This document shows, one piece after another, positions 2,795-61,100 of a DNA stretch of 64,000 nt (position 1 is its first letter; each line of letters starts with the position of its first letter). The translations under genes were made by a program, and so were the position numbers. The notes below the pieces were generated by a model. That model was not told the origin of the DNA and did not search any database. It saw nothing but the letters and a program-made list of their open reading frames with translations. The stretch comes from Catenovulum agarivorans DS-2. Lineage in GTDB: Bacteria; Pseudomonadota; Gammaproteobacteria; Enterobacterales; Alteromonadaceae. The DNA lies in assembly GCF_000568405.1 (NCBI RefSeq), contig NZ_ARZY01000015.1, forward strand, positions 1 through 64,000, in the 5' to 3' direction.

Positions 2795-3400
2795 ATGAGT
2801 ATCAAACGAGTAAAACCTGTTAAGCAAGGGGATTTAGATGGCGCTTGTGGTTTTTATGCAATTGTAAATGCGCTTAAAACACTTGAACCAGCATTTGATG
2901 AGCAGGAACTATTTACACAAGTTATTGGTGGCTATATGCAAGATGGCGATTTTAATAGCTTTTTTAATGGAACAAGGCGCGGAACAATTAAAAATACCTT
3001 AAGCCGAGTGATTGATTATATCAATGGGCAGTATGATTTATTTGATGACAAAACCGCAGAGCTTTACAGGCTCAAATTTTCAATTCCTTTTTGGCATAAA
3101 GACACAGCCCGAACAAGAAAGTCAGTATTGAAAGAAATTCAGCAAGCTGACAACGGCAAAAATCTTGTGTGTATCATAGGCTATGACCTTCAATATGGTG
3201 GGCACTGGTCAGTGGTTAAGAAAGTATCAGATAAAGGGTTGCATATGGTTGATTCATCATACGAAAAATCAATTATTCCTTTAGCTGAAATGAGAGTCGA
3301 CAGCAATCAGAAACCTAGTAAATTAAAACCATATAATTTATGTTCTGACGACATATTTATCATAGAAAAGCAGTGGTTGGGTGATGTCTTTCATGATTAA
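2795..3400 (+). CDS. Stand-alone papain-like (C39-like) cysteine protease
   Basis: A 201-residue protein without signal peptide or membrane segment. The sequence has the layout of a papain-fold cysteine peptidase of the C39/BtgH-like type: Gln11 in KQGDLDG as a possible oxyanion-hole residue, Cys18 in GACGFYAIVNA, His137 in YGGHWSVV, and Asp153 in MVDSS. Spacing and hydrophobic context of all four fit the fold. The start ATG has AAGGA seven bases upstream. It lies between a restriction-like helicase and the HNH/coiled-coil pair, so a role in a conflict system, for example processing a partner or a toxin, is possible. That is inference; it could also be a transglutaminase-like or inactive relative. 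The exact family was not identified. Confidence 0.6.
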   Translation: MSIKRVKPVKQGDLDGACGFYAIVNALKTLEPAFDEQELFTQVIGGYMQDGDFNSFFNGTRRGTIKNTLSRVIDYINGQYDLFDDKTAELYRLKFSIPFWHKDTARTRKSVLKEIQQADNGKNLVCIIGYDLQYGGHWSVVKKVSDKGLHMVDSSYEKSIIPLAEMRVDSNQKPSKLKPYNLCSDDIFIIEKQWLGDVFHD

Positions 3401-3499: not shown

Positions 3500-5071
3500 A
3501 TGGATAGCAATAAGCAAGCGACTCAGACTAAAAGCGAGCTTCGTGAACAAAGATTACAGGAATTATTAAATAGCTGCCAAGAGCAAGTGATACAACAAAT
3601 AATTGGTCCTTTTGGACTGACCCCCGCAATGTTTGATGATAAGCGCGGTGGGAACGTAACTACCCAACATAATGCAAACCAGGGGATTTTTGCTAAAGAG
3701 TCAGAAGAATACAGCCGCGTTGATTATGACTACAGTCAAGCTAAAAGGGATAAAATGAAGGAGGCAGTGCAAAATGGCACGATGAATAGTCAGGTTTTCA
3801 TAGATGAATACACTGGCAAAACGGAATCTACTCAAAGAACCACTTCTACAGGTAAGCTGGGTACGAATGCCGAGTTGGATCATACAAAACCAGTAGCGGA
3901 AATCCATAAAGGTGGTGGTTGGATGATGGATAAAGACGGTAGAAAAGCAGTCGCGTCTGAGAAAGATAACCTCCATTACACCACAATGGAAAATAACAGG
4001 AAAAAGAGTGACTTGTCTGCTGAAGACGCTTTGTCTGCTGAGAACGGATACGATCCTTCGGTCACACAACCTATAATAGATAAAGCAAATGAAGCAGTTG
4101 AAAAACACATGCCAACCGCGATGGAGCGCATGCAATACCATGGTAAAGAGCTCGCGATAACAGGAGCTAAAGAGGCGAGTAAAAATGCGTTACGCCAAGC
4201 TTTAGGTGTTTTGCTGCACGAATTTGTTCAAGGCTCATTTGTCGAGCTAAAACAATTGATGTCTCATCCTAATGATCAATCTTTAATTGAACGTTTAATA
4301 TCAGCCTTTAAACGTGTAGCAGAACGAGTAATTTCAAAGCTCAAACACGCTTTAGAGTCGGCTTTAAAAGGAGGTGTTCAAGGGTTTGTTAGTAATCTTC
4401 TTACGTTTATCATCAACTCTGTTGTTACAACTTCTGCTAAGGTGGTTACCATAATTCGTGAAAGCATGAAAGGCTTGTGGGAGGCTTTAACTCTGCTAGT
4501 TAAGCCACCCAAAGAACAACCCTATAGCGAAGTGTGCCGTCAGGTTACCAAAATTTTTGCAGGTATTGTAACTATGGGGCTCGGTATGATGTTTGAAGAA
4601 TCCATTAAGGGATTTATTATGTCGATTCCGATCTTAACGCCAATTGCCGATGTTATCTCACTTGCCGTATCAGGAATACTGACAGGGATAACTACAGCTT
4701 TGGTTATCTACGGAATTGATCGCTTCTTTGATTGGTTATCATCAACCGGAACTGAATTGTTACAAGCAAAAGAAGCTCATTTAGACGAACTCAAAAATAA
4801 TTTTCATCAGATGGCGAACTGGATTGAATCACAGTATCAATGCTCTACAGAATATCGTCAGATTGCCGCTGAATATGGAATGATTGAACGCAATTTACAT
4901 CGTGCTTCAGAGCAATCACATCAAACTCTTGATAGTGGTAGCCGTATGTTGGAGAGTCGTGCGATAGCAATTAGCAATTTGGAACAAGAAATTGAAAAAC
5001 ATCGCAGTCAGCAAGACGAGTTAGACCGGCTAATGCAAGCTTATTTTGAGTCAAAGGAGACCGATAGATGA
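3500..5071 (+). CDS. HNH-type nuclease with C-terminal membrane/helical domain
   Basis: A 523-residue protein that I cannot assign to a named family. Residues 125-170 form an HNH signature: ELDHTKPVAEIH (Asp127, His128, His136), then DNLHYTTMENNRKK (Asn157, His159, Asn165-166, Lys168). Residues about 210-345 are amphipathic helices, and about 351-410 are strongly hydrophobic with two or three possible membrane segments. Residues 415-523 are charged and probably coiled coil. The N-terminal 100 residues are polar. The ATG has a strong ribosome site and its own promoter. The last four bases overlap the next gene (ATGA), implying translational coupling. A nuclease joined to a membrane region, coupled to a membrane-anchored coiled coil, resembles the architecture of membrane-associated defence or toxin systems, but the function is inference. 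Confidence 0.65.
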   Translation: MDSNKQATQTKSELREQRLQELLNSCQEQVIQQIIGPFGLTPAMFDDKRGGNVTTQHNANQGIFAKESEEYSRVDYDYSQAKRDKMKEAVQNGTMNSQVFIDEYTGKTESTQRTTSTGKLGTNAELDHTKPVAEIHKGGGWMMDKDGRKAVASEKDNLHYTTMENNRKKSDLSAEDALSAENGYDPSVTQPIIDKANEAVEKHMPTAMERMQYHGKELAITGAKEASKNALRQALGVLLHEFVQGSFVELKQLMSHPNDQSLIERLISAFKRVAERVISKLKHALESALKGGVQGFVSNLLTFIINSVVTTSAKVVTIIRESMKGLWEALTLLVKPPKEQPYSEVCRQVTKIFAGIVTMGLGMMFEESIKGFIMSIPILTPIADVISLAVSGILTGITTALVIYGIDRFFDWLSSTGTELLQAKEAHLDELKNNFHQMANWIESQYQCSTEYRQIAAEYGMIERNLHRASEQSHQTLDSGSRMLESRAIAISNLEQEIEKHRSQQDELDRLMQAYFESKETDR

Positions 5072-6219
5072 GTACTGAGCTTAAACAAGTCGTTCAATCA
5101 ATGTCTCAGGTTTCAATTCCCCAAGAAATCTTAAACAAAGTTGATATGAAAAATCTTCTGCAAGGTTTTTCGGATGACTACAAAAAACTAGATGATTTAA
5201 AGAAAGCTAGATCTCAGCATGAAGATAGAAGCATGATTGGTCGCTGGTTGAACAACGGTGAACTTGAAAATGCACAGCTTGATGCCGCAGAGTTACAGGC
5301 CAGTTTTTCGAAAAAGTTAGGCCAGTTGATGGTTATTTCTGTTGCACAATCTCAGCAACTTCACCAACAGCAAGTAGATTTGTCAGGTCAGCAAAAAATC
5401 ATTAAAAAACAAACTGAGCAGTTAGCTGACAATGATGAGAACTTAAAAACGCAGCAGCTTAGTTTAGAGCAGCAAAATGTAAAGCTTGAAAATTTAGTTA
5501 ACGAGTATTTTGAATTAAAGGGGTTAACTCAGGATGGTGCTCTGCAATTAATTAAAATTGCCAATGAAGTTAAAGAAACCAAAGAGTATTTGGCTAATGA
5601 TTTTGAAATACGGATGCAGGAAATAGAAAGGATTCGTCAAAATATTCTCATCGAACAATCTGAGTTGAAGAGTCACCAAATTCAGCAACTGAATATTTTT
5701 GCTGACGATGCAAAGCAGCGTTTGGAAGACTATCGACATTTGATAGATCAAACTGTTAAGCAGGCTTCTGATCAAATTCGCTTAACAGAGCAACAGCTGC
5801 AGTTAGCAATGAATACGGTAGAAGAGCGAATAGATGAGACATTGTTAACTTCGATGGGAGAGCAAAAACAACAATTAGCAGAATATGATCTGGGTTGGCG
5901 AGACAATAGGGACGAAATACTCGCGGTATTGAATCAATGCCAGAATGATAGTGAGAACGCGATTCAACTACAAAATAGCCGACTCGAGGAGCTGCGAGAC
6001 GATAATGCCCAATTACAACAAAAACTAAATAAACAGGAACAGCAGAATACTCAGCAATTGGACGTATTACATTCATTATTAGATACTCTGAAAACAGAAT
6101 CCGAGAAGCGTGAACTTTATTGGCAGCAACGCTGGAAATTAATGACAAGTTCAATAGCTGGTATTGCGACTACTTTAGCCGCAATAATAGGTTATTGGGC
6201 TTATATGAGTTACTATTAA
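5068..6219 (+). CDS. Tail-anchored long coiled-coil protein, partner of the HNH protein
   Basis: A 383-residue protein, rich in Gln, Glu, Lys and Leu, with almost continuous coiled-coil character from about residue 75 to 350 and a single C-terminal hydrophobic segment (about 357-380, ending WAYMSYY). It would be anchored in the inner membrane with the coiled coil in the cytoplasm, if it follows the usual tail-anchor topology. No N-terminal signal peptide is present. It starts inside the stop codon of the HNH gene, so the two proteins are probably made in a fixed ratio and may form a membrane complex. It ends 24 bases before the stop of the convergent WYL regulator. No known domain was recognised; sensor or scaffold for the nuclease is a guess. 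Confidence 0.65.
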   Translation: MSTELKQVVQSMSQVSIPQEILNKVDMKNLLQGFSDDYKKLDDLKKARSQHEDRSMIGRWLNNGELENAQLDAAELQASFSKKLGQLMVISVAQSQQLHQQQVDLSGQQKIIKKQTEQLADNDENLKTQQLSLEQQNVKLENLVNEYFELKGLTQDGALQLIKIANEVKETKEYLANDFEIRMQEIERIRQNILIEQSELKSHQIQQLNIFADDAKQRLEDYRHLIDQTVKQASDQIRLTEQQLQLAMNTVEERIDETLLTSMGEQKQQLAEYDLGWRDNRDEILAVLNQCQNDSENAIQLQNSRLEELRDDNAQLQQKLNKQEQQNTQQLDVLHSLLDTLKTESEKRELYWQQRWKLMTSSIAGIATTLAAIIGYWAYMSYY

Positions 6220-6242: not shown

Positions 6243-7199
6243 CTAAGCTGTGTTCTGTGAGTTAGAATGATGAGAGCTTATGCTTTTCATCAGCCGTCCA
6301 ATTTTACCGTACATTTTTTTACACACCCAGTTGGGCGAGGTTATAGCAACTTCGCCCTCGGCAAATACGACAAAACGCCATATATCCGCTAATTTATTAA
6401 ACTCTATACTTAGCAAGGTCTCATCTTTGGTTGAATCAATGTCGTGATTGAATCTGTTAGTGGTTAGATAGCCGCTTATGCGGTCGGTTAAATTGGAGCA
6501 TTTTGCTTGTACCTTTATTGTGGTTAAGGTTTCACTGTTAAGTTGTGCGGTTTCAGACTTTAGCTCTACGTCTAGAATGTCCATAAGTTTTAGCTCTGAA
6601 ACTTTTAAGCTCAATTCACTTAAACGAACAAAATATTTTGCAGGGTTGTGGTTATAATCTACCCGCCAAATTTCTGCATTTGGATAGGTTTTGTTTACCT
6701 TGATTTGGCCGAATATTCGTCTGTTTAGGCTTAAGCGTATTTTGCGTTTTTTTACTAAGGCTAATATGAGTTTGGCTTCGTTTTTATCGGCACCCGTCAT
6801 TTTATTCAGTGCTTGTTGGCCTGATAGCTCTTTTAGTACACTTTCGGCGGCCGTAAAATAATTACTCAGTGGCTCAAGCAGGTGGTCGGCTAGTTGGGGC
6901 TCCAATACCTGCTTTATCAACAAAAATTGAATGGCTGTGCGTGCCGACATGCTGTTAAGTGCATTGGCGCGCCAAGTTTTGTTGTAGCTCCAGCCGTAAG
7001 GTTTACTGCGTTGGTCTAGCTCTATACCAAAGTTACCTGCATTGTATAAATGCTGTAAGTCGCGTTGAATAGAGCGCACACTGGTTGTTTCGCCTTCTGC
7101 TATTAATTTGGCGTATAAATCTTGCGTGGTAATTTTTTGTGGTGACCTTGGCAAAAACTGCAACATGGTCATCACGCGCTCTAACAGTTCAACTTTCAT
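6243..7199 (-). CDS. WYL-type helix-turn-helix transcriptional regulator
   Basis: A cytoplasmic DNA-binding regulator. The N-terminus (KVELLERVMTMLQFLP, then SVRSIQRDLQHL) is an HTH_11/DeoR-like winged helix. The remainder, with the KKRKIRLSLNR and YFVRLSEL stretches, fits a divergent WYL ligand-binding domain and a C-terminal extension. WYL regulators commonly control defence islands by sensing nucleotides or nucleic acid, which is family knowledge. The start at 7199 (ATG, about 318 residues) is preferred over an upstream TTG at 7214. It lies 42 bases downstream of the FtsZ-like gene on the same strand and is likely co-transcribed with it. It is convergent with the coiled-coil gene, 24 bases away. 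Confidence 0.75.
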   Translation of the reverse strand: MKVELLERVMTMLQFLPRSPQKITTQDLYAKLIAEGETTSVRSIQRDLQHLYNAGNFGIELDQRSKPYGWSYNKTWRANALNSMSARTAIQFLLIKQVLEPQLADHLLEPLSNYFTAAESVLKELSGQQALNKMTGADKNEAKLILALVKKRKIRLSLNRRIFGQIKVNKTYPNAEIWRVDYNHNPAKYFVRLSELSLKVSELKLMDILDVELKSETAQLNSETLTTIKVQAKCSNLTDRISGYLTTNRFNHDIDSTKDETLLSIEFNKLADIWRFVVFAEGEVAITSPNWVCKKMYGKIGRLMKSISSHHSNSQNTA

Positions 7200-7241
7200 A
7201 ACAGGTATCTTCAAGTAGCTTGAATAGCAGTTTAATACGAG

Positions 7242-8228
7242 TTAACGGCAAAATGCGTCGTTAACCAAAGTGGATACGTTTAAATCAAACTTAGGTTCGT
7301 TTTCTAGCGCGCCACTGAGTATAAAAAACACCTCAATATCTTCTTTGGCCTCGTCGGTTTGGTGTAGCCCTATAATTAACAATGCATTTTCTGCAATATG
7401 TTGTTGAATCATATCGCCAATGGTTTGTAAATCCAGCAAGTTAAAGTTGCTACCTGCATTAATTTGTACCAGTGCAGCATGGCTGCGCCTTATGTAAGCA
7501 TGTAATGCTAATGGGTTGATAAGCTGCGTATGGCTAATACTGTCTATAGCTTGGTGATTAATACTCAGTTGATTGATGTGCACAAAGCTTGGCTCTGTCA
7601 GTACTGCTTTAACATCGTTCATATCTAGGTTAATTAAACTGACTTTAGTTAAAATATCGACCACACCAGATAAACAGGTTAAGTTAGCTTGGTTCGATTG
7701 TTTAAAACATTCAAGCAAAGTGGTTTTGCCACCAAATATGCTGCGTAACAAGTTATTCTGAATAACTTGAATGGCATTACACAAGCCGGTTATTTTTTGC
7801 AGTGCGGCTTGTGCCTGCTGCATACGTTTTTTGCCCTCAAACTCAAAGGGTAGGGTGACAATACAGCAAGTTAATATGTTGGCTTGTTCAATCAGTTTTG
7901 CAATAACTGGTAATGCGCCGCTGCCAGTACCGCCGCCAAGGCCTGCGGTTAATACAATAAAATCGTAACCTGATACCAATGCTTCTAGTTGTTTAGACGA
8001 CTCTAAAGCCGCAGCTTCGCCAACTTGTGGTAAGGCGCCAGCACCTAAGCCTCGTGTGGTTTGCTCGCCAATTTGAATATATTCAATGCCATCTTGCTGG
8101 TGGCTTACAATGTCAGTATTTAACGCAAATAAGCTTGCTTGACTTGCAAAACCCGCTTGGGCAATCAAACGCACATTGTTGCAGCCACAGCCGCCTACAC
8201 CAATTACCGCGACAAATGCATCATTCAT
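7242..8228 (-). CDS. FtsZ paralogue (tubulin/FtsZ-family GTPase)
   Basis: A 328-residue FtsZ-like GTPase. The nucleotide-binding motifs are present: GVGGCGCNN at residues 10-18, GAGALPQVG at 62-70, TAGLGGGTGSG at 94-104, and TLPFEFEGKKRM at 125-136. The T7 loop reads NLDMND (200-205), keeping both acidic residues that activate the neighbouring subunit's GTP, so assembly and hydrolysis are plausible. It is shorter than housekeeping FtsZ and ends soon after the GTPase core, with no obvious linker or conserved C-terminal peptide for FtsA/ZipA. The usual division neighbours (ftsA, ftsQ, lpxC) are absent. Instead, one WYL regulator follows it and another is divergent. The ATG has AAGAGG upstream. 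It is an accessory cytoskeletal or defence-linked FtsZ, and its role is unknown. Confidence 0.85.
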   Translation of the reverse strand: MNDAFVAVIGVGGCGCNNVRLIAQAGFASQASLFALNTDIVSHQQDGIEYIQIGEQTTRGLGAGALPQVGEAAALESSKQLEALVSGYDFIVLTAGLGGGTGSGALPVIAKLIEQANILTCCIVTLPFEFEGKKRMQQAQAALQKITGLCNAIQVIQNNLLRSIFGGKTTLLECFKQSNQANLTCLSGVVDILTKVSLINLDMNDVKAVLTEPSFVHINQLSINHQAIDSISHTQLINPLALHAYIRRSHAALVQINAGSNFNLLDLQTIGDMIQQHIAENALLIIGLHQTDEAKEDIEVFFILSGALENEPKFDLNVSTLVNDAFCR

Positions 8229-8366
8229 ATCAACCTCTTAAATTTGTTTATTATTTTGTTGATTTCAGTATGCATTTGGCTGCGCCAGAGTGTGTCGCAT
8301 TGCGCTAGGCATTGTTAAAAAAACACGGTATAACAGGCGGTAATAGAATTATAGGGCGGATAAGAA
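8229..8366. promoter_or_regulatory. Divergent control region between the FtsZ-like gene and the second WYL regulator
   Basis: This 138-base gap holds both start regions: AAGAGG before the FtsZ-like ATG (minus) and a weak site before the plus-strand ATG. The stretch around 8280-8310 has TGCGCC and TTGCGC half-sites separated by GTGTCGCA, which could be an operator for one or both WYL proteins. TATAAC near 8329 may be a -10 for the plus-strand gene, but I could not find a well-spaced -35. Confidence 0.35.
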
Positions 8367-9380
8367 ATGGATGACCTTCAATTAAAAGTGCTGGATTGTT
8401 TGCGCCAAAGCACTAGGCCGAAAACGAAAAAAGAAATTTATCAATATTGTAGCGATGCATCGGAAGATGTCAGCCAACGTTCAGTTGAACGTGCTGTCAA
8501 TAAGTTAGCTGAACTAAATTACATAGAGCCAGTTGACGCGACCAAACAACGTAACCAGCAATGGCAACTCTGCCTAGAAAGTGCATTGTTTAGTGCCAGT
8601 TTATCGGCTTTTGATGCACTGATGATTAAACTTTTATACCAACATAGCCGAGCCATTTTGCCAGTATCAAACTTTAGTCAAGTGTTGTTAGACAGTGCTG
8701 AGTTGGTTATTGATAAACTACCGCCTAGCTCGCCGTATCGAAAATGGCATAAAAAAGTTTTTATAGAGCAACGAGGCCAGCCGCTGCTGCCCCCAGAAAT
8801 TGAAGATGAAATACAAACAACTTGCTACCAAGCCTTGTTTAATGAAACAGCGCTGAAAATTCAATATAAATCCAAGTCTGAAACGAGTGATGTTAGTCAG
8901 TGGCGTACGGTTTATCCTGTGGGCTTAGTGATCCGCTCGCATATTCATTATTTAGTTGTGCAGTTTCAAGGCAATGAACAAGCGTATTATTTATTATCAA
9001 TGCACCGCATAGTGGCGGCGGACAGTACCAGTGATACTTTTGATTATCCTCAAAACTTTGAATTGAACCGCTATGTTCAGCAAGGTAGAACTGGGTTGGC
9101 GTATACCGACAAAACTGTTGAAATTAAGCTTAAATTTTATGATTTTGCCCGCAATATAGTCGCAGAAAGCCCAATTAACGACACAATGAAGTGGTTAGAA
9201 AGTGGCGAGAACTATACCTTTTATTCTGTAGAGTTAGTGCCAAACTACGATTTTGAAAGTTGGTTATTGAGTTTAGCTGAGTGTGTGGAAGTGGTGGAGC
9301 CTGAGCATTTTAGGGAGCATATGCGCCAGCGATTATCGCAAGCGCTTGAGTTGTATGGTGTTAATAAAAAGCCTAACTAG
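8367..9380 (+). CDS. WYL-domain transcriptional regulator (divergent from the FtsZ-like gene)
   Basis: A 337-residue regulator. The N-terminal 75 residues form a winged helix (VLDCLRQS, QRSVERAVNKLAEL). Residues about 165-240 form the WYL domain: ALKIQYKSK, then WRTVYPVGLVIRSHIHYLV and a later YLLSMHRI. A C-terminal WCX-like extension runs from about 245 to 330 (VEIKLKFYDFA, SLAECVEVVEPEHF). This architecture matches BrxR/CapW-like repressors that bind upstream of defence operons and are released by a ligand. It is divergent from the FtsZ-like gene with a shared 138-base control region. Its last eight bases overlap the 3' end of the next, convergent gene. Confidence 0.85.
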   Translation: MDDLQLKVLDCLRQSTRPKTKKEIYQYCSDASEDVSQRSVERAVNKLAELNYIEPVDATKQRNQQWQLCLESALFSASLSAFDALMIKLLYQHSRAILPVSNFSQVLLDSAELVIDKLPPSSPYRKWHKKVFIEQRGQPLLPPEIEDEIQTTCYQALFNETALKIQYKSKSETSDVSQWRTVYPVGLVIRSHIHYLVVQFQGNEQAYYLLSMHRIVAADSTSDTFDYPQNFELNRYVQQGRTGLAYTDKTVEIKLKFYDFARNIVAESPINDTMKWLESGENYTFYSVELVPNYDFESWLLSLAECVEVVEPEHFREHMRQRLSQALELYGVNKKPN

Positions 9381-9950: not shown

Positions 9951-12900
9951 TTATGCAAAGGTGATTTTCCACGAGTCGGGGATTAGCGAAGTTTGATGTT
10001 GGCTAAGTCCTTCATAGACTTCGTTTACAGCTTTGCGAATGCTTGAGGTTCTATCGATATTTTGATTGCCAATCAAGTGGTAGAGTCGCCAGTTTTCATT
10101 TTTTAGGTAATCACGAATTTTACTAATTTCGTTAGGCGATAAATAAATAGTTTGGTCATTGATAGATTGCGATGATTTAACTTCTACTAAACACAATTGC
10201 ATTTGGCCTTCACTATATTCAGGTAATATCACATCAAAGCCTAAACCATCACCAATAGATGTGGATACTTGCAGTATCTCTAGCCATTTTGATTTACCGG
10301 TAGAGTTTTGAAGTTGTTTAAGCTGGTCTTTAAAATTGGATAAGTCTAACTCTTTGAATATCTCTGAAGCTAAGAATTCACGTTCGATAGTCTCGGTCAA
10401 AGTTTCTGACCAATCAGGTAATTCCTTCTCTAGTAATTTTAAGGCGTTATATATTACTTGTTGCTCGGCTTTTATTCCTCGTTGCTGCTGCTCTTTTGCT
10501 GTTGTCAGCCTTTGTTCTGATGATACTTTTCTCGCATGTGTCGTGTTAGATTTAGACAAAATTGGATTAGATTTAGCTGTTGCACTATTATCCTGCACCT
10601 TTATCAAGTCGCTGGTCATTTCTAGTTGCATTGCTAATTGAGCGTCAGCAAATTGTTTTTTTGCATCTTCAAACGCTAATTTATTTACTGTATCTGCGGT
10701 AAAAAGTTGATAAATATCTTGTTCGGTTAGAACAAACTTATCGAATTCTGGTGGTTGTGCGTCATCGCTAAGTTTGCTCAGTTTTGAACGATATATTTGT
10801 TCCAGTTGCTCTGGGTTTTTATTGCCTTCGGCCTGATTTAGATATAACCAGCAAATTATCTTATCTTTAATACGTTCAATGTTCAGTAGGTGATGGTTAG
10901 TTGGTTTTAATGCCGCGAAGAGATTTTTGATTTTTTCACTACAGTTTGAATCACTTTGTACGAATTCATTTAACTGGCTAAATGTTTTATCACTAGCATG
11001 CGTTTGATAAAACTTAAGTGTTAGATAGTCCATTGGCTGTGCATTTGTGAGTTCTGCTGGCTTCAACTGGCTATCAATTAATTCCTTAAACTGTGTTAGC
11101 TCGCTGACTGACAGTGTATGCTGCTCAATAAAAGCTTGTGTTTCGGTTATATCTGATTCGTCAATGCCCAAGCTAGTTAAGTAATCTGTTTGTGCATTTT
11201 CGATTGTTTTAGTTTTGGTTAAATGATGTTTTAGTAATAAAGTTTGCAAACTTGCCCCTAGAACGCGAGTTCGAAATATTGCATCGGCAAACACTTCACC
11301 AAATTTGTCGATATCTGGGCTGTTTATTGCATCTTCTAGGTCATGAGCTATTTCTCCGACTCGAAATCGACTGTTTTCATCTTTTGAGTTGCTGCGCTCA
11401 TCCAAAGCTAAAGGTTTATACAAAACGTCTTTATTACTACCTTCATGTTCTTTGCTTTCATTGATCTTTAATTGAACGTCATCGGCTTTATAAATAACGA
11501 GCTGATTCCAGCGTTGCAATACATCTGTTTTTTCTAATTTACTGCCGAGTGTTGCTTCTGCTAGCAATAACATTTCAGCTAACAACTGTGATTGTAAATA
11601 CTGCTTAAATTCAGTATCCACTTGTTTGCTGTTTTCTGGAGCATAGATTATTTGGTAACTCGGGTTAAATAAGGTGCAGTTTAAATAGTCTTTGGCAAAC
11701 TTACTGGAAAGGTTGTCATCAGCAATTAAATAAACGCTGTCGGCAGGTAGATGGGCTTTATGTTTTTTCTGCTCTCGGTCAACAAAATAAACTTGTTGGC
11801 CGCTGCAGCGGTAATCATCTTTTTTGCCATCAGACACTAATACTGGCAGGTTTTGCAGTTGATCTTTGATAGCACTTGAATCATCTAGACGAGCCAAGCG
11901 ATACACCAGCTGTTTGTATAAGGTTTTATGTTCTGTTGTTATGCTATTTTCTTTGCTTAGGGCTGCTAGTGCATTAATCAGTTTATCTGCATTTATTGTG
12001 TTTTCTATTTCAGCAATTTCAAATACGCGGTGAAGATCATGATAGTCATGGTTTTTACTGGCTTGTCCTATTGCTGGGCGTTTATGCTGGTCGTTAAATA
12101 AAAACGTTTGTTTAGGTGTGCAAAATTGCTGATTTATCTCGTCAAAATACCATGCTTGTTCAATTAATTGCGTTTTTAATTCATCAAGTATATTTGACGA
12201 CAATTGTTGCCAAACAGGCAAACTCATCGCGATAAGGTTTTTATAGTTTGGCTGATGGGTTGTTATGTCATTTTGCGTTGAAATATTAAACCCTAGTTTT
12301 ATTGGCTGGGTATCTGATTCACGACAAATGGGTAATACCTGCCATATGCCAAACAAATTATAGATTTGTGTTTGTTTGGTTTTAAATTTATCAATTATTT
12401 GAGTACATTTAGCTAAATCTAAAATGGCAAAATCTTCATGCAAAATAGATTTGCCAACTGTCTGTCCTGTATAACAGTAGCGTGCTGGACGCCATTTTCC
12501 ACCTTCACATGGAAATTTAATTTTGCTGACTTGTGCAAGTAATGAGTTGTTTCTGTCTTTTGCATTTTTATTAAATGCATCTAAATTCATGCTTTGTGAT
12601 TTTTCAATTTGCTCGTGTAACAACTGCATGCTCAGCTTCAGAGTGTCAGTATAAATTGCCTCTATATTGAAATTTTCACTATTGTGTTGTGGATAAGCGC
12701 TGGTTAATTGCCTGATAATCTCAATGGTTGAAAAAGGTTTTATGTAGTTAAGTGCTTTTAAAAATTCAAGTTCGTTATAGTCGGTGATGGTAACATGCCT
12801 GATATTTTGGAATGCAGCTGGCGCAACTATGGCTTGCTGTGCGTCGTTTGTTTGGTTGCCTTTTAAAAATATTGCTTGGTTAATGTTATTGTCGTGGTTA

Positions 12901-14465
12901 ATGCGGCTGGACAATGGCACTACACCGCTATAAGTGGGGATTATTTTTATTTCATCGTCACAAAACGTTTCGCAAGCAAGTTTTTGCTTATCTTCTAATT
13001 CTTTGACGCTGGGTAGGCGTTTATGTTTAGCTCGTAACTTTGTTTCAATTCTATCAAGCCATATTTTTAGTGCTTGTAATGCGTGTTCACATCGTTGTGG
13101 TATTTCCCCGTTTTCCGCTGAGTTAATATTATCGCCTGTTGTTAAATTTGTTTGTGAGTAGGCTTGTTTTAAAATTGATTTGAGCAAGCGGGTATCTTGC
13201 AAGTTAAACAACTGTTTTTCTAATTCGTCACTGAAAGGGCTTTTATTATCTAGCTGCAAAAACAAAGCAAAATGTGGCAGGTTAATAATGCTGTTATCTT
13301 GTAAGGCTGCTATAAATAATTGTGCTGCGTGATTCAGTAATAATTGGTTGTATGGGTTATTGTTAAAATCAATTTGTTTGCGCGACACATCTAATAAAAA
13401 ATCAGCATGAATAATAACACTGTGCGCACAACGAACTTCAGTTGGTAGGTAGCAATAAAATTGCGGGTGAAATTCGTTCGATTTAGCTAACTCAGCTTCT
13501 AATGGCAAAGCAATTGATAGGGTTGGTTGCGAAATAGGGTAGTTGAGTGCTTTGGCTTGTTCGCTTAATTCTTTTAACTCTTCGGGTGTGAAATTTTTCT
13601 CAAATGTTCGCCATTGGCCAATTTTATCTTGAGTTGACAGTGTTTTTAAAAATTCAGCAGGTTGCTCACTTTCATCAGATGAGTTTTGATTCGGAGTGAT
13701 TTTTAGTGTTAGAACAACATTTTTATTCCGCGCGCTAGCTAGTTGATTGATAAAAATAAGTTGGTGTTGGGCAAATGCTTTAATTTTTTCGGCTAAATCT
13801 TTTAATTTATTTTTTGGTATATCGTTAAAACGAATGATGGTTTGTGGTGTTTTATTGTCAAAACATACTGGTGAAAATAGCTCGTTAATATTCGTTAGTT
13901 GTTTTGGGAAATAAAACGAAGGTACACAGTGACCATTATTTTGGCCATTAGCGAGTTTTTGCTGAATACCTTCATTGTTCAACCAACTTGTAATGTTTGG
14001 CTCATTGTGAAATTGTTGTGATAGTTCGTTTGAGGTTAGATCTCGGCGAATGTTAAATCCCCACTTTATACCATCTTTAATACTGGCTATGTCAACACTT
14101 TGGGTGTATTCCCAGCAAGATTTAAAACCAACGCCTTTGTTACCGATAGACTCACCAACTTTTTTACTGCTGGAGTGGGTGGTTAATAGCGCATGAAAAT
14201 CTGATTTTTTATCAAAGCTTTTTGGGAAAATTGAAAATCCTTGTCCGTCATTTGCAATCATTAAGCTGCGCTTATTTTCATCTAACACTATCCAAATATT
14301 TGATTCAGCTCTGTCTATCGCGTTTTGAAAAAATTCAAAAATCGCTCGACCTCGATAGTCATTGGTAATGGATTGCTCAATATTAATGTCGCGTTCTAAA
14401 TCTGAATAATGTTTTTGGGCTGATTCTTTAATGTGTTCCGCTATAATATTATCGATTGATGTCAT
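9951..14465 (-). CDS. Giant GHKL (sacsin/HSP90-like) ATPase with C-terminal DUF3883-like nuclease domain
   Basis: A 1504-residue cytoplasmic protein. The N-terminus is a GHKL ATPase: Asn48 in FEFFQNAID, Asp73 in ANDGQGFS, and the glycine lid GNKGVGFKS at 108-116. This matches sacsin/'NO VEIN'-type proteins. The long middle is helical without recognisable motifs. Residues about 1415-1475 (GLGFDVI, LCLVEVKSS, then ISKIRDYL) fit the DUF3883 domain, whose E-x-K core suggests a PD-(D/E)xK fold. Such proteins are frequent in defence islands. The ATG has a perfect AAGGAG. The gene is transcribed alone; upstream are only fragments of other genes. Substrate and nuclease activity are unproven. Confidence 0.8.
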   Translation of the reverse strand: MTSIDNIIAEHIKESAQKHYSDLERDINIEQSITNDYRGRAIFEFFQNAIDRAESNIWIVLDENKRSLMIANDGQGFSIFPKSFDKKSDFHALLTTHSSSKKVGESIGNKGVGFKSCWEYTQSVDIASIKDGIKWGFNIRRDLTSNELSQQFHNEPNITSWLNNEGIQQKLANGQNNGHCVPSFYFPKQLTNINELFSPVCFDNKTPQTIIRFNDIPKNKLKDLAEKIKAFAQHQLIFINQLASARNKNVVLTLKITPNQNSSDESEQPAEFLKTLSTQDKIGQWRTFEKNFTPEELKELSEQAKALNYPISQPTLSIALPLEAELAKSNEFHPQFYCYLPTEVRCAHSVIIHADFLLDVSRKQIDFNNNPYNQLLLNHAAQLFIAALQDNSIINLPHFALFLQLDNKSPFSDELEKQLFNLQDTRLLKSILKQAYSQTNLTTGDNINSAENGEIPQRCEHALQALKIWLDRIETKLRAKHKRLPSVKELEDKQKLACETFCDDEIKIIPTYSGVVPLSSRINHDNNINQAIFLKGNQTNDAQQAIVAPAAFQNIRHVTITDYNELEFLKALNYIKPFSTIEIIRQLTSAYPQHNSENFNIEAIYTDTLKLSMQLLHEQIEKSQSMNLDAFNKNAKDRNNSLLAQVSKIKFPCEGGKWRPARYCYTGQTVGKSILHEDFAILDLAKCTQIIDKFKTKQTQIYNLFGIWQVLPICRESDTQPIKLGFNISTQNDITTHQPNYKNLIAMSLPVWQQLSSNILDELKTQLIEQAWYFDEINQQFCTPKQTFLFNDQHKRPAIGQASKNHDYHDLHRVFEIAEIENTINADKLINALAALSKENSITTEHKTLYKQLVYRLARLDDSSAIKDQLQNLPVLVSDGKKDDYRCSGQQVYFVDREQKKHKAHLPADSVYLIADDNLSSKFAKDYLNCTLFNPSYQIIYAPENSKQVDTEFKQYLQSQLLAEMLLLAEATLGSKLEKTDVLQRWNQLVIYKADDVQLKINESKEHEGSNKDVLYKPLALDERSNSKDENSRFRVGEIAHDLEDAINSPDIDKFGEVFADAIFRTRVLGASLQTLLLKHHLTKTKTIENAQTDYLTSLGIDESDITETQAFIEQHTLSVSELTQFKELIDSQLKPAELTNAQPMDYLTLKFYQTHASDKTFSQLNEFVQSDSNCSEKIKNLFAALKPTNHHLLNIERIKDKIICWLYLNQAEGNKNPEQLEQIYRSKLSKLSDDAQPPEFDKFVLTEQDIYQLFTADTVNKLAFEDAKKQFADAQLAMQLEMTSDLIKVQDNSATAKSNPILSKSNTTHARKVSSEQRLTTAKEQQQRGIKAEQQVIYNALKLLEKELPDWSETLTETIEREFLASEIFKELDLSNFKDQLKQLQNSTGKSKWLEILQVSTSIGDGLGFDVILPEYSEGQMQLCLVEVKSSQSINDQTIYLSPNEISKIRDYLKNENWRLYHLIGNQNIDRTSSIRKAVNEVYEGLSQHQTSLIPDSWKITFA

Positions 14466-57837: not shown

Positions 57838-57993
57838 ATGGCTCAAACAGAAGTTAAAAAAACGCAAGCAACCAAAACGTTTGTACCCAAAATGACTAAT
57901 TTTGAGATTAGCTCCCGATATGAAGGCTTAACTTTCAAAAAAGAAAATTTAAGTAAATCACTCGAAGAGCTAAAAGCTAAGTATGCGAGATAA
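57838..57993 (+). CDS. FicA/YhfG-type antitoxin
   Basis: A 51-residue protein too short for routine gene finding. The end LSKSLEELKAKYAR matches the C-terminus of E. coli YhfG, the Fic antitoxin. The inhibitory helix motif S/T-x-x-x-E-G is present as SSRYEG, the Glu that blocks ATP in the Fic active site. GGAG lies six bases before the ATG, and a TATAAT is 26 bases upstream. It overlaps the fic start by 11 bases in another frame, ensuring coupled synthesis. Confidence 0.8.
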   Translation: MAQTEVKKTQATKTFVPKMTNFEISSRYEGLTFKKENLSKSLEELKAKYAR

Positions 57994-58579
57994 ATACGGT
58001 GTTAGTCAGGACAGCTATTGCTACCTTAATTCAGACGTATTGATCAATAAGCTAAATATTACAACACAAGACAAGCTATCGGACGCAGAACTGGAGTTTA
58101 CTGCCTATAGGTATAGCCAATACACATCAAAAATAACTTCGCTTACAGAGTTCAATTTTAGTCACCTCAAGTACCTTCATTTGCACTTATTTCAAGATGT
58201 TTATCAATGGGCGGGGGAAATAAGAACTGTAGACATATCTAAAGGGAACACTCGTTTTTGTAGTTGTCTGAGAATTGAAGCTGAAGCTAACAAGCAGTTA
58301 GCGCGCATTCAGACTTTAGATCCAACGCAATCTCATTTTTTCCAGGAAATTACAGATATTTTCTGTGAGTTAAACGTAATTCACCCATTTCGTGAAGGAA
58401 ATGGGCGTACTCAACGGTTTTTCTTTGAAGAGCTCTTTTTCTACCTTGGCTACAATGTTGCTTGGCCAGACATATCAAAAGAAGAGTGGATTGAAGCCAA
58501 CATCAAAGGCTACCACGGCGATTTAGGTGCGTTATGCGATATATTGAATTCAGCTACAGCCAACCACTCTCAGCTATGA
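57983..58579 (+). CDS. fic: Fic-domain AMPylating toxin
   Basis: A 198-residue class I Fic protein, transferring AMP or another nucleotide to a hydroxyl of a target protein. The active-site loop is HPFREGNGRTQR, complete with the catalytic His, acidic residue and the two arginines. The hairpin flap (KGNTRFCSCLRIE) and DVYQWAGEIRTVDIS are typical. No inhibitory helix is in this protein; it is supplied by the 51-aa partner. The stop is followed by an FRG-domain fragment. Confidence 0.92.
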   Translation: MRDKYGVSQDSYCYLNSDVLINKLNITTQDKLSDAELEFTAYRYSQYTSKITSLTEFNFSHLKYLHLHLFQDVYQWAGEIRTVDISKGNTRFCSCLRIEAEANKQLARIQTLDPTQSHFFQEITDIFCELNVIHPFREGNGRTQRFFFEELFFYLGYNVAWPDISKEEWIEANIKGYHGDLGALCDILNSATANHSQL

Positions 58580-58599
58580 TTAAACCTCTATGAGTATGA

Positions 58600-58959
58600 C
58601 TAAACGTAGATATATTTGTAGATAGTTTAAGTTCAGAGCATGACCGCTTAATCAGTCAAAGTGGTCTATTTACAATTTCACCCTTTGGTGGTTCCGATAC
58701 TTTAGAATCTCAAATAATAACCGAGCTAGCTGAGCGAGAAGTAGATATTGATGACTCAGAAACACTTCGCCGCTATATTTTTAAAATACATGTTCCTATG
58801 GAAAGTGAGGAGGAGCGAAGAGATTGCTTTAAATCTTTGCTTAAGATGAATTTACACCACGCCAGTTTGTACCCAGATTTAATTGGCTCCTCATTACATT
58901 GCAATGAAATAGTGAAAGAAACTTATTTGGAAATAGCCGCGTTGAAAGAAAAGAAATGA
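58600..58959 (+). pseudogene. FRG-domain protein, 3' fragment
   Basis: About 119 sense codons without a start, opened by TGA at 58597. The beginning HDRLISQSGLFTISPFGG and the end LHHASLYPDLIGSS match the R..aQ.G.F...... and the ..SLFPDLDG parts of FRG (DUF) domains, which occur in conflict proteins. Upstream half is missing, replaced by the Fic operon 20 bases away. It may be expressed by coupling to fic, but no proper start exists. Confidence 0.55.
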
Positions 58960-59083
58960 CTCTAGATTAAAGGCGAAATAAGTTTTTGGTTATTTTAAGT
59001 GAAAAAGTCACTTTAAAGTTGATTTATTTGCTCTATTTGTTTAATTTTAACTTAATTTAAACGATTTTTTTGGATAACTGATT

Positions 59084-60457
59084 ATGTTACTCCGTTTTTC
59101 CGTTGAAAATTTTAAGTCTTTTAAACAAAGGGTTGAGTTTTCAATGTTGCCGAGCCGGGTTAAAAGTCATCCGGCGCATGTAATACGCGCAAAAAATACT
59201 AAAGACATCAGCGTATTAAAATCTTCAATTATTTATGGTGCTAATGCCTCGGGTAAATCTAACCTGATTAAGGCCATGCGTCACGCGCAGGCTATGGTTG
59301 TTGAGGGAGCAAAGCTAGGTAAAAACCTACCTTACGATCCTTTCCGCTTAGATCAGTCCTGTGCAACACAGCCCACTCGCTTTGAGTTTGAAATTAAAAG
59401 CGGTAAACAAAATTACGCTTATGGTTTTAGTGCCGACCATAAAGCTATTTATGAAGAGTGGTTATTCGAAATAAATAAAAGCGGCGAAACCTCAGTATTT
59501 GAGCGCTCATTACAGAATAATCAAAGCCAGTTTGATTTTGGACCGTTAAAGTTTAAAAACAAAGAAGATGAGCAGTTTTTGCAATTTACCGCCAAAGGCA
59601 CACCGACAAATCGTTTATTTTTAGCCGAGTGTTACGAGCGCAATGTATTAACCAATTTAAATTATTTAACAGCGTTTGTGGATGTGAGTTATTGGTTTCA
59701 TGAAAAGCTGAATATTGTATTTCCTAACTCTAAATATCATGGTTTAGAAATGCAGTTGCATGTAGGCAATGATAATGCCGATATGCTGGCTAGAATACTG
59801 AACGAATTTGATACTGGCGTTGCAGGTTTATCGCTTAAAGAAATTGACTTTAATAAAGAGTTACCTGAATTACCAAGCTCGGTTAAGCAAGATATTCTGC
59901 AAGAAATTGACGAAAAAGAAGCTATTTTTGTTGCCGGACCACGTAATACCCGCTATCAATTTGTAAGGGACGAAACCAGTCAAGTAAAAGCATTTAAATT
60001 AATGACTAAACACTTAGATGCAAGTGGAGAGGAAGTGCTGTTTGATATCTTTCAGGAATCAGATGGTACACAAAGGCTATTAGATATTGCGCCCGGTTTG
60101 TTAGATATTTTTTCTAAAGACAAAGTGTATATCATAGATGAAATAGATCGCAGCTTGCATAGTGAAATCACTACGTCGCTTTTAAATACTTTTTTAAATT
60201 TAACTTGTGACGTGCAAAGCCAGTTGATTGTAACCACTCACGAGTCAAACTTATTGAACTTGGATTTAATTCGCCGAGACGAAGTTTGGTTTACTCAAAA
60301 GGATAAACTAGGCGCTACCAGCTTATATTCACTGGAAGAATTTCAGCCAAGGTTTGATAAAGATATTCGTAAAGGTTATTTAGTTGGCCGCTTTGGTGGT
60401 GTGCCTGTTATTAAAGATTTGTTTTCTGAGTTTAAGGGAGCAAATTGTGCCTCGTGA
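59084..60457 (+). CDS. rloA: RloA-type AAA ATPase (AAA15 family)
   Basis: A 457-residue ABC/SMC-like ATPase of the AAA_15 family. The opening LLRFSVENFKSFKQRVEFS and Walker A YGANASGKSN (about residues 51-60) are family hallmarks. Walker B is YIIDEIDRSLHSEI, followed by the H-loop VTTHE. It pairs with RloB: the 3' end overlaps the RloB start by 11 bases. RloAB pairs belong to the AbiL-type abortive infection group and are often linked to type I restriction operons, as here. A small hairpin lies at 58997-59013 before it. Confidence 0.85.
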   Translation: MLLRFSVENFKSFKQRVEFSMLPSRVKSHPAHVIRAKNTKDISVLKSSIIYGANASGKSNLIKAMRHAQAMVVEGAKLGKNLPYDPFRLDQSCATQPTRFEFEIKSGKQNYAYGFSADHKAIYEEWLFEINKSGETSVFERSLQNNQSQFDFGPLKFKNKEDEQFLQFTAKGTPTNRLFLAECYERNVLTNLNYLTAFVDVSYWFHEKLNIVFPNSKYHGLEMQLHVGNDNADMLARILNEFDTGVAGLSLKEIDFNKELPELPSSVKQDILQEIDEKEAIFVAGPRNTRYQFVRDETSQVKAFKLMTKHLDASGEEVLFDIFQESDGTQRLLDIAPGLLDIFSKDKVYIIDEIDRSLHSEITTSLLNTFLNLTCDVQSQLIVTTHESNLLNLDLIRRDEVWFTQKDKLGATSLYSLEEFQPRFDKDIRKGYLVGRFGGVPVIKDLFSEFKGANCAS

Positions 60458-61100
60458 GCGTCGGGACTTTGATCGAATAACGGGTGTTAGAGATCCTTCA
60501 TTAATCGTAATTGCAATGGAAGGCGCTGAAACAGAGCCTCAGTATTTTAACGCAGTCAGTAAAATAGCTGATGAGAGCAAATCACGTCTTAAATTAAAAA
60601 TTTTACCTAAGCGGGAAAATGCTGTCAGCGCTGCTAAATATGTTTTAGAGCAAATGAATGATTATAAAAAAGAGTTTGGTATTAAAAAAACGGATGAACT
60701 CTGTTTGGTAATTGACAGGGATGCACAGTCTTTAAAAGAGGCGAATCTTGCAGATGTTGCCCGCTTATGTGCAGATAAACAGTATTTGTTAGCGCTGAGT
60801 AACCCGTGTTTTGAATTATGGCTATTATTACATCATTTAGATGTGTCGGCAGAATCTGGAGCAGAAAAACAAAGCTTATTAGCAAACAAAAAGCAATTTG
60901 CCAAAAATAAACTCAGGCAGGTTATGGGAGGCTATAATCCTGCTAATTTAAACTTGGATGACTTTTGGCCTCAAACCAGAGTTGCGATAGAAAGAGCTAA
61001 AGCACTAGATAATTCTCCTAAAGACAGATGGCCAAATGATTTAGGCTCGCGTGTTTATTTAATAATGGATAAAGTGCTTAATATGCTTGAGAGTGACTGA
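60447..61100 (+). CDS. rloB: RloB-type TOPRIM-like protein
   Basis: A 217-residue effector partner of RloA. GTG 60447 is chosen over an upstream frame start because AAGGGAG lies six bases before it, giving MPRERRDFDRITG. Key motifs are MEGAETEPQYF (TOPRIM-like Glu), LVIDRDAQ (DxD) and ALSNPCFELWLLLH, characteristic of RloB. By analogy with OLD-like systems it may be a nuclease activated by RloA; not proven. hsdR follows after 41 bases. Confidence 0.85.
   Translation: MPRERRDFDRITGVRDPSLIVIAMEGAETEPQYFNAVSKIADESKSRLKLKILPKRENAVSAAKYVLEQMNDYKKEFGIKKTDELCLVIDRDAQSLKEANLADVARLCADKQYLLALSNPCFELWLLLHHLDVSAESGAEKQSLLANKKQFAKNKLRQVMGGYNPANLNLDDFWPQTRVAIERAKALDNSPKDRWPNDLGSRVYLIMDKVLNMLESD

What the first reader, a model, noticed from the sequence alone, without database searches (positions are those of the whole stretch)
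3500..6219. Coupled HNH/membrane and tail-anchored coiled-coil pair: candidate undescribed system
Two genes with their own promoter overlap by four bases. The first joins an HNH signature (DH at 127-128, N157, H159, N165) to a hydrophobic domain; the second is almost all coiled coil with a C-terminal membrane anchor. Neither matches a family I can name. They sit in a defence island bounded by an integrase. The design suggests a membrane-localised nuclease complex activated by a coiled-coil sensor, comparable in concept to other membrane-anchored anti-phage systems. The function is inference.
Basis: partly seen in the sequence, partly recalled or inferred. Interest (0 to 1): 0.78.

Follow-up and report, generated by a model that had tools for sequence, protein, structure and literature searches.

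The report
Membrane HNH nuclease with coiled-coil partner
Two overlapping bacterial genes encode a probable membrane-bound DNA-cutting enzyme and a membrane-anchored rod-like partner; they belong to a family already listed as a candidate anti-phage system, and the enzyme appears to swap partners, including the sensor of a known defence against giant phages.

Summary
The pair is real and lies exactly at 3500-6219: B (523 aa) and C (383 aa), overlapping by 4 bases. It is not undescribed: PADLOC-DB lists both as a phage-defence candidate (PDC-M40B, E=7e-97; PDC-M40C, E=2e-19). I found no functional test in the papers searched.

B is an HNH protein joined to a hydrophobic helical domain. C is a long coiled coil with a C-terminal membrane anchor. 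C follows B in 38 of 54 fetched loci.

The window belongs to a branch without the SUKH gene (PDC-M40A) found in a second branch. Elsewhere B has other partners: a glycine-zipper protein, a TerB-like protein, or a JukA/TerB-like fusion. That marks B as a modular effector. Relatives sit beside Hachiman, inside a BREX operon, in a Tn7-like element and in a 260-kb phage.

Most likely mechanism (inferred): a partner holds B at the inner membrane, senses phage entry and lets B cut DNA there. New variant of a known kind.

The parts
3500..5071 (+). Gene B, 523 aa: HNH domain plus hydrophobic helical domain plus C-terminal long helix; PADLOC PDC-M40B
   Evidence: ORF; PDC-M40B E=7.1e-97, residues 9-513 of a 547-position model
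3803..4006 (+). HNH core of B, residues 102-169; D127 at 3878-3880, H128 at 3881-3883, N157 at 3968-3970, N166 at 3995-3997
   Evidence: H128, N157, N166 71/71, D127 69 D + 2 E; beta-hairpin and helix in the model
4523..4723 (+). Hydrophobic region of B, residues 342-408, modelled as two helices; probable membrane hairpin
   Evidence: KD19 maximum >=1.6 in region 340-412 in 52/52 relatives; helices 342-374 and 377-423. Membrane insertion is inferred
4781..5065 (+). C-terminal long helix of B, residues 428-522; possible docking site for C
   Evidence: Model. Residues after D407: median 112 in B-C loci (25), 109 with SUKH (20), 104 with glycine-zipper partner (15), 42.5 with TerB-like (6), 42 with JukA fusion (2). 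Docking is inferred
5068..6219 (+). Gene C, 383 aa: coiled coil with C-terminal membrane anchor; PADLOC PDC-M40C
   Evidence: ORF; PDC-M40C best of four models E=1.9e-19; almost all helix
5068..5071 (+). ATGA overlap of B stop and C start (translational coupling likely)
   Evidence: Sequence; -4 overlap also in L041 and L048 and in the E. coli and Variovorax copies
6139..6210 (+). Tail anchor of C, residues 358-381
   Evidence: KD19 1.52 at residues 358-376; hydrophobic C-terminal stretch in all 35 aligned relatives by eye

Best explanation
The pair is a two-gene, SUKH-less variant of the PADLOC candidate PDC-M40. B is a membrane-embedded HNH nuclease effector and C its tail-anchored coiled-coil partner. 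Likely mechanism: both sit on the cytoplasmic face of the inner membrane; C, through its rod, keeps B inactive and/or detects a disturbance made by phage entry (ejected proteins, DNA, local membrane change); B then cuts or nicks the DNA next to the membrane, first of all the incoming genome. Shown here: anatomy, invariant HNH residues, hydrophobic and anchor segments, conserved pairing, partner swapping within the family, and defence neighbours at some loci. Inferred: anti-phage activity, topology, direct B-C contact, sensing by C, DNA as substrate.
For: PADLOC candidate match of both genes. HNH residues invariant in 71/71, with a confident HNH-like hairpin and helix in the model. C directly follows B in 38 of 54 loci, and the C profile hits none of the other 3,116 of 3,154 ORFs there. 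Purifying selection on both genes against the E. coli copy, dN/dS about 0.06 and 0.08, with dS near saturation. The B family also pairs with a protein holding a JukA domain (E=2.6e-58), and Juk acts at the site of phage entry (review PMC13282480, passages). BREX genes BrxC and PglX flank the pair in L048 and Hachiman HamB lies near it in L035. Mobile: Tn7-like element in E. coli; present in the window's genome and in none of 7 other genomes of the genus. Zorya II is a working precedent: a membrane complex with a long cytoplasmic tail brings the HNH nickase ZorE to the membrane on infection (PMC11890865, passages).
Against: No phage test exists here. Nuclease-type structure matches are weak (best E 0.52; profile 0.022), and non-nuclease chains rank among them. 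Only some relatives have defence neighbours: of 16 loci of the window's branch, two have core defence genes within about 5 kb and two more a WYL regulator; the rest are unclear. C resembles no known sensor. B's hydrophobic helices could form a pore instead. Foldseek of C was not run.
Confidence: 0.5

Rival explanations
1. Abortive defence: B is held silent by C (by C and SUKH in the other branch) and, once infection breaks that restraint, cuts the host chromosome, so that the infected cell dies or stops.
For: SUKH directly upstream of B in 21 of 54 loci; SUKH proteins are known as immunity proteins of nuclease toxins (recalled; a review, PMC3482391, only appeared in a listing). ZorE is reported to damage host DNA (PMC11890865, passages).
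Against: The window's branch has no SUKH beside B and the genome has no PDC-M40A match; membrane tethering favours action at entry.
Confidence: 0.25
2. Membrane disruption: the hydrophobic domain of B is the effector (pore or depolarisation), and the HNH domain senses or binds DNA.
For: Strongly hydrophobic helices in all 52 tested; partners with glycine-zipper stretches; JukB forms pores (PMC13282480, passages).
Against: Three HNH residues are invariant, as expected for catalysis; none of the 11 B proteins scanned hit the JukB model that PADLOC holds.
Confidence: 0.12
3. Exclusion of plasmids or rival mobile elements rather than of phages.
For: Found on 73 of 72,556 plasmid records, many conjugative, in Tn7-like cargo and in phage LAh10.
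Against: Also on chromosomes in BREX and Hachiman surroundings; JukA-linked copies.
Confidence: 0.08
4. Toxin-antitoxin or secreted polymorphic toxin: B is a nuclease toxin, C its antidote.
For: HNH nucleases with SUKH neighbours occur in polymorphic toxin loci (recalled).
Against: The HNH domain is not C-terminal and the scans showed no trafficking domain; a 383-aa membrane-anchored rod is unlike an immunity protein.
Confidence: 0.05

Closest known systems
PDC-M40 (PADLOC-DB phage-defence candidate; A = SUKH, B, C)
   Same: B and C match its models, same gene order and partner type
   Different: No SUKH gene (PDC-M40A) beside the pair or found in the genome; a separate, well-supported branch of the B tree
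Juk (JukA sensor with varied effectors)
   Same: In Raoultella and Citrobacter a JukA/TerB-like fusion lies directly before a B relative; membrane-level action is proposed for both
   Different: The window has no JukA; the 11 B proteins scanned do not hit the JukB model
Zorya type II (ZorA, ZorB, ZorE)
   Same: Membrane-anchored long cytoplasmic rod with an HNH nuclease
   Different: No MotA/ExbB or OmpA domain and no ZorE match in the two proteins; here the nuclease itself carries the hydrophobic domain
PDC-M09 (PADLOC candidate with a glycine-zipper A protein)
   Same: Its A protein resembles the partner of B in another branch (L016, L020, L021: E 2e-20, 4e-29, 3e-16)
   Different: No such protein in the window pair; the C profile does not hit these partners

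Membership tests
PDC-M40 | B protein | tested here: met
   PDC-M40B E=7.1e-97 over 9-513
PDC-M40 | C protein | tested here: met
   PDC-M40C four models, 1.9e-19 to 1.8e-8
PDC-M40 | A protein (SUKH) in the operon | tested here: not met
   No PDC-M40A match in the whole genome at E<=0.001, control rang in B. subtilis; gene upstream is not SUKH. Whether PADLOC's rule demands A was not checked
HNH nuclease superfamily | H and N residues in a beta-beta-alpha fold | tested here: met
   H128, N157, N166 71/71; hairpin and helix in the model. Catalysis itself not tested
HNH nuclease superfamily | Significant structural match to a solved HNH/His-Me nuclease | tested here: inconclusive
   Best endonuclease I prob 0.72, E 0.52; Cas9 HNH prob 0.23, E 3.6
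Juk | JukA sensor | tested here: not met
   No JukA match in B, C or the genome (control rang in E. coli)
Juk | JukB effector | tested here: not met
   No JukB hit for window B at E<=1 or ten relatives at E<=0.1; the model exists. The genome search with it rang nowhere and shows nothing
Zorya | ZorA MotA/ExbB domain and ZorB OmpA domain | tested here: not met
   No such Pfam or PADLOC hit in B or C
Anti-phage defence system | Protection against phage | not testable with these tools
   Needs a plating experiment

The most novel reading that the evidence does not exclude
B is the shared effector of a broad, partner-swapping class of entry-site immunity: one membrane-embedded HNH nuclease coupled to a coiled-coil rod (the window), to rod plus SUKH, to a glycine-zipper protein, to a TerB-like protein or to a JukA/TerB-like fusion. 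The JukA versions would be Juk systems that destroy the phage genome directly at the membrane rather than by pores, and the window pair the same effector with a coiled-coil sensor of its own.
Probability: 0.35. Interest if true: 0.78.

Novelty: new variant of a known kind. Interest (0 to 1): 0.52.

Why it matters
PDC-M40 is a catalogue entry for which I found no mechanism. Identifying its B protein as an HNH protein with a membrane domain, naming H128, N157 and N166 as the residues to alter, and showing that the same protein is wired to several kinds of partner, one of them JukA, makes it testable whether membrane-tethered nucleases meet phage DNA where it enters. The E. coli copy in a Tn7-like element gives a convenient laboratory version.

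Tried and rejected
Gene 2795-3400 (201 aa; papain/C39-like by eye; no hit in Pfam, PADLOC, NCBIfam or PHROGs) as a third member: rejected. In loci L001-L021 its only BLASTP hits were the window and L001, which is the same stretch of the same genome. It was not searched for in later loci.

Pfam hits of B to oleosin, IL11 and DUF445 and the PHROG tape-measure hit (E 0.004): below cut-off or likely compositional. 'Cobalamin adenosyltransferase' and 'chemotaxis protein' on relatives: no scan of the LAh10 pair supported these names; the others were not scanned for them.

G387 and G328 as B carriers (E 2.6e-4 and 5.2e-4): dropped, the family profile found no B ORF there.

Single-protein related-loci scans found nothing; a four-row alignment found 53 genome loci, a five-row one found 1 viral locus.

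mad3, mad8 and AriA hits beside L049 are one 616-aa protein, probably a general ATPase; mad2 also rang in the control. Mads is not claimed.

Weak HEC-05 hits (E 4e-5, 5e-4) in the HNH region of two B relatives were not followed up.

Literature: 'PDC-M40' in 0 papers; two searches returned 0; others (7 papers, 7 listed; 126, 20 listed; 58, 30 listed) showed no paper on this pair in titles, abstract starts or term counts. Passages only were read in PMC13282480, PMC12571901, PMC12595487, PMC12735699, PMC7824862, PMC13092281 and PMC11890865. The Juk primary paper is not held, nor are most preprints, and no supplements could be read. 'No test found' refers to this library only.

Full report
WHAT IS THERE. 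The window holds two overlapping plus-strand genes, B at 3500-5071 (523 aa) and C at 5068-6219 (383 aa), sharing ATGA. Against the E. coli copy (80% and 66% amino-acid identity) dN/dS is about 0.06 for B and 0.08 for C; dS is near saturation, so the values are rough, but both genes look constrained. A sigma-70 scan shows no site in the 99-base gap before B and fewer sites overall than in shuffles, so 'own promoter' is unsupported.

FAMILY. Pfam and NCBIfam have nothing above cut-off for either protein. PADLOC-DB names B PDC-M40B (E=7.1e-97) and C PDC-M40C (best of four models 1.9e-19). A Klebsiella plasmid locus with SUKH + B + C matches PDC-M40A, B and C at 3e-76, 4e-281 and 7e-127, which shows what the entry is. 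The pair is thus a listed candidate. No paper with the word PDC-M40 was found, nor any functional test in the other searches, whose listings were mostly not opened.

HNH. In 52 B proteins (window plus 51 of 54 fetched loci; three short or broken ORFs, L076, L083 and L085, dropped) H128, N157 and N166 are 52/52 and D127 is 50 D + 2 E. The most divergent member, L025, was left out of that count; in an earlier alignment, as L005, it shows E-H, N and N. H159 (9/71) and N165 (11/71) are not conserved. The AlphaFold model (46 sequences, mean pLDDT 78.5, pTM 0.49) is confident over residues 81-200, with a hairpin and helix at these residues. Foldseek against PDB has no match at E<=0.001; the best is endonuclease I (prob 0.72, E 0.52), then Vvn and Cas9 HNH domains among unrelated helical proteins. 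A profile search gives a DUF262 protein (E 0.022) and endonuclease I (E 0.2), with a designed protein and saposins between and after. The phage relative of B weakly hits endonuclease VII over its HNH region (E 0.007). These are weak, but the nuclease hits agree with the motif.

MEMBRANE PARTS. All 52 B proteins have a strongly hydrophobic 19-residue window in region 340-412, modelled as two helices. C is modelled as an almost unbroken helix; by eye all 35 aligned C proteins have a hydrophobic stretch at or near the C-terminus, two of them (L038, L040) with a further tail. With one anchor at its end C should be cytoplasmic; with a hairpin, B's HNH domain and C-terminal helix should lie on one side. 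Topology is inference.

PAIRING. In 54 loci (53 genome, 1 viral) a C profile built from five sequences outside that set hits 38 of 3,154 ORFs. These are one per locus in 38 loci, each the gene after B; in L083, where B is broken into pieces, C lies 608 bases after the best-scoring piece. The other 16 loci are L053, L065, L071-L081 and L085-L087. L065 and L072 also have a downstream coiled-coil gene with a hydrophobic tail (by eye; L072 barely reached by the profile, E 0.0013). L085 is cut at a contig end. SUKH lies directly upstream in 21 of 54.

PARTNER SWAP. On a tree of 72 B proteins, the 20 SUKH-B-C rows form one clade (100/100) and the window with 19 other SUKH-less B-C rows another (100/100); the branch joining the two is weak (91/55), and two further B-C rows (L013, L023) and one long row (L019) lie outside. 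Elsewhere B sits beside a glycine-zipper protein (16 loci, one family by two profiles; three of them scanned, all hit PDC-M09A) or a TerB-like protein (L012, L014, L015, L018, L022, L033, L074, L087; one family by profile; the name TerB is my reading, Pfam did not call it for the two scanned). In Raoultella and Citrobacter the partner has a JukA part (E=2.6e-58, Raoultella copy scanned; the Citrobacter copy matches it, E 1.5e-292) and a tail of the TerB-like family. Partner labels, assigned before the last checks and with L087 still as 'other', need 10 changes on the tree against 39 in shuffles. The B tail after D407 is long with C, SUKH + C or glycine-zipper partners (medians 112, 109, 104) and short with TerB-like or JukA/TerB-like ones (42.5, 42). 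This is the pattern of a shared effector with exchangeable partners.

DISTRIBUTION. B matches 2 of 98 relatives of the window's genome, own included, and none of 7 other genomes of the genus; 6 of 369 genomes of the class, of which 4 hold up; 73 of 72,556 plasmid records; 2 of 50,697 phage records, both phage LAh10; and by DNA 2 of 5,426 E. coli genomes. The closest copies, 80% identical in B, lie between two insertion sequences inside a Tn7-like element in E. coli. A rare, mobile accessory pair.

DEFENCE CONTEXT. Window: type III restriction Res (45-2687), a 1,504-aa protein whose N-terminal part matches TmtA (9951-14465), WYL-type genes and an integrase-like gene; the TmtA-like gene is full-length in this genome only among 8 of the genus. 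For 16 loci of the window's branch, 95 flanking ORFs matched 75 PADLOC families at E<=1e-10, of which 25 were shown, against 13 families for 95 ORFs from 16 arbitrary regions of related genomes. Families are redundant (one PglX-type protein alone gives 31), so these numbers exaggerate the difference, and the control is not matched locus by locus. Scanned one by one, 7 of 20 chosen ORFs hit: Hachiman HamB near L035, BrxC and PglX on either side of the pair in L048, WYL genes in L037 and L046, a PDC-M27B/ZacB-like protein in L047 and a probable general ATPase in L049. So 2 of 16 loci have core defence genes within about 5 kb, 2 more a WYL regulator, 2 are ambiguous, and the other 10 showed none among the ORFs scanned singly; their remaining ORFs were seen only in the pooled scan. 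The evidence for a defence role is suggestive, not uniform.

MECHANISM. Best reading (0.5): a membrane-tethered HNH nuclease whose tail-anchored coiled-coil partner restrains it or senses phage entry, so that DNA is cut at the membrane. The Juk link supports the place of action: a review says JukA detects early phage proteins and recruits effectors to the infection site, JukB making pores (PMC13282480, passages). Zorya II is the nearest working analogue (PMC11890865, passages). The abortive rival (0.25) rests on SUKH in the other branch.

MEMBERSHIP AND VERDICT. PDC-M40: B and C met, A not met, hence 'SUKH-less variant'. Not a Juk member and not Zorya. The pair is real and a catalogue candidate; what is added is the right HNH residues, the SUKH-less branch and the partner-swapping effector with a JukA link. 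Interest 0.52.

Noticed in passing
window 6243-9380: An accessory FtsZ paralogue (328 aa, 7242-8228, minus; Pfam Tubulin 4.5e-33) with a weakly WYL-like gene beside it (6243-7214, minus) and a divergent WYL gene (8367-9380, plus). Besides the canonical FtsZ present in 8 of 8 genus genomes, the paralogue occurs in 3 of 8 (own, G006 91%, G004 57%); the neighbouring gene is kept in G006 and both are kept in G004. It could be a separate FtsZ-based module.
   Followed up: partly
window 2795-3400: A 201-aa protein that looks papain/C39-like by eye, directly before the pair, with no hit in Pfam, PADLOC, NCBIfam or PHROGs.
   Followed up: partly
window 57983-61100: A Fic gene (PDC-S04, E=1.6e-73) followed by an AbiLi/AbiLii-type pair (E=1.4e-88 and 7e-21): a second defence cluster in the window.
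   Followed up: partly
window 9951-14465: A 1,504-aa protein with a HATPase-type N-terminal part (PADLOC TmtA, E=2e-64 over residues 4-389) and a PDC-S36-like stretch near its end (E=2.6e-5).
   Followed up: no
L048:17-11554: In Endozoicomonas the pair lies between BrxC and PglX, as if inserted in a BREX operon.
   Followed up: partly
L021:6943-9539: Aeromonas phage LAh10 (260 kb) carries a B relative with a glycine-zipper partner; a phage may use it against rivals.
   Followed up: partly
L017:5609-9401 and L029:4609-8401: WYL gene, JukA/TerB-like fusion and B relative in a row on Raoultella and Citrobacter plasmids: an apparent Juk-type operon with an HNH effector.
   Followed up: partly
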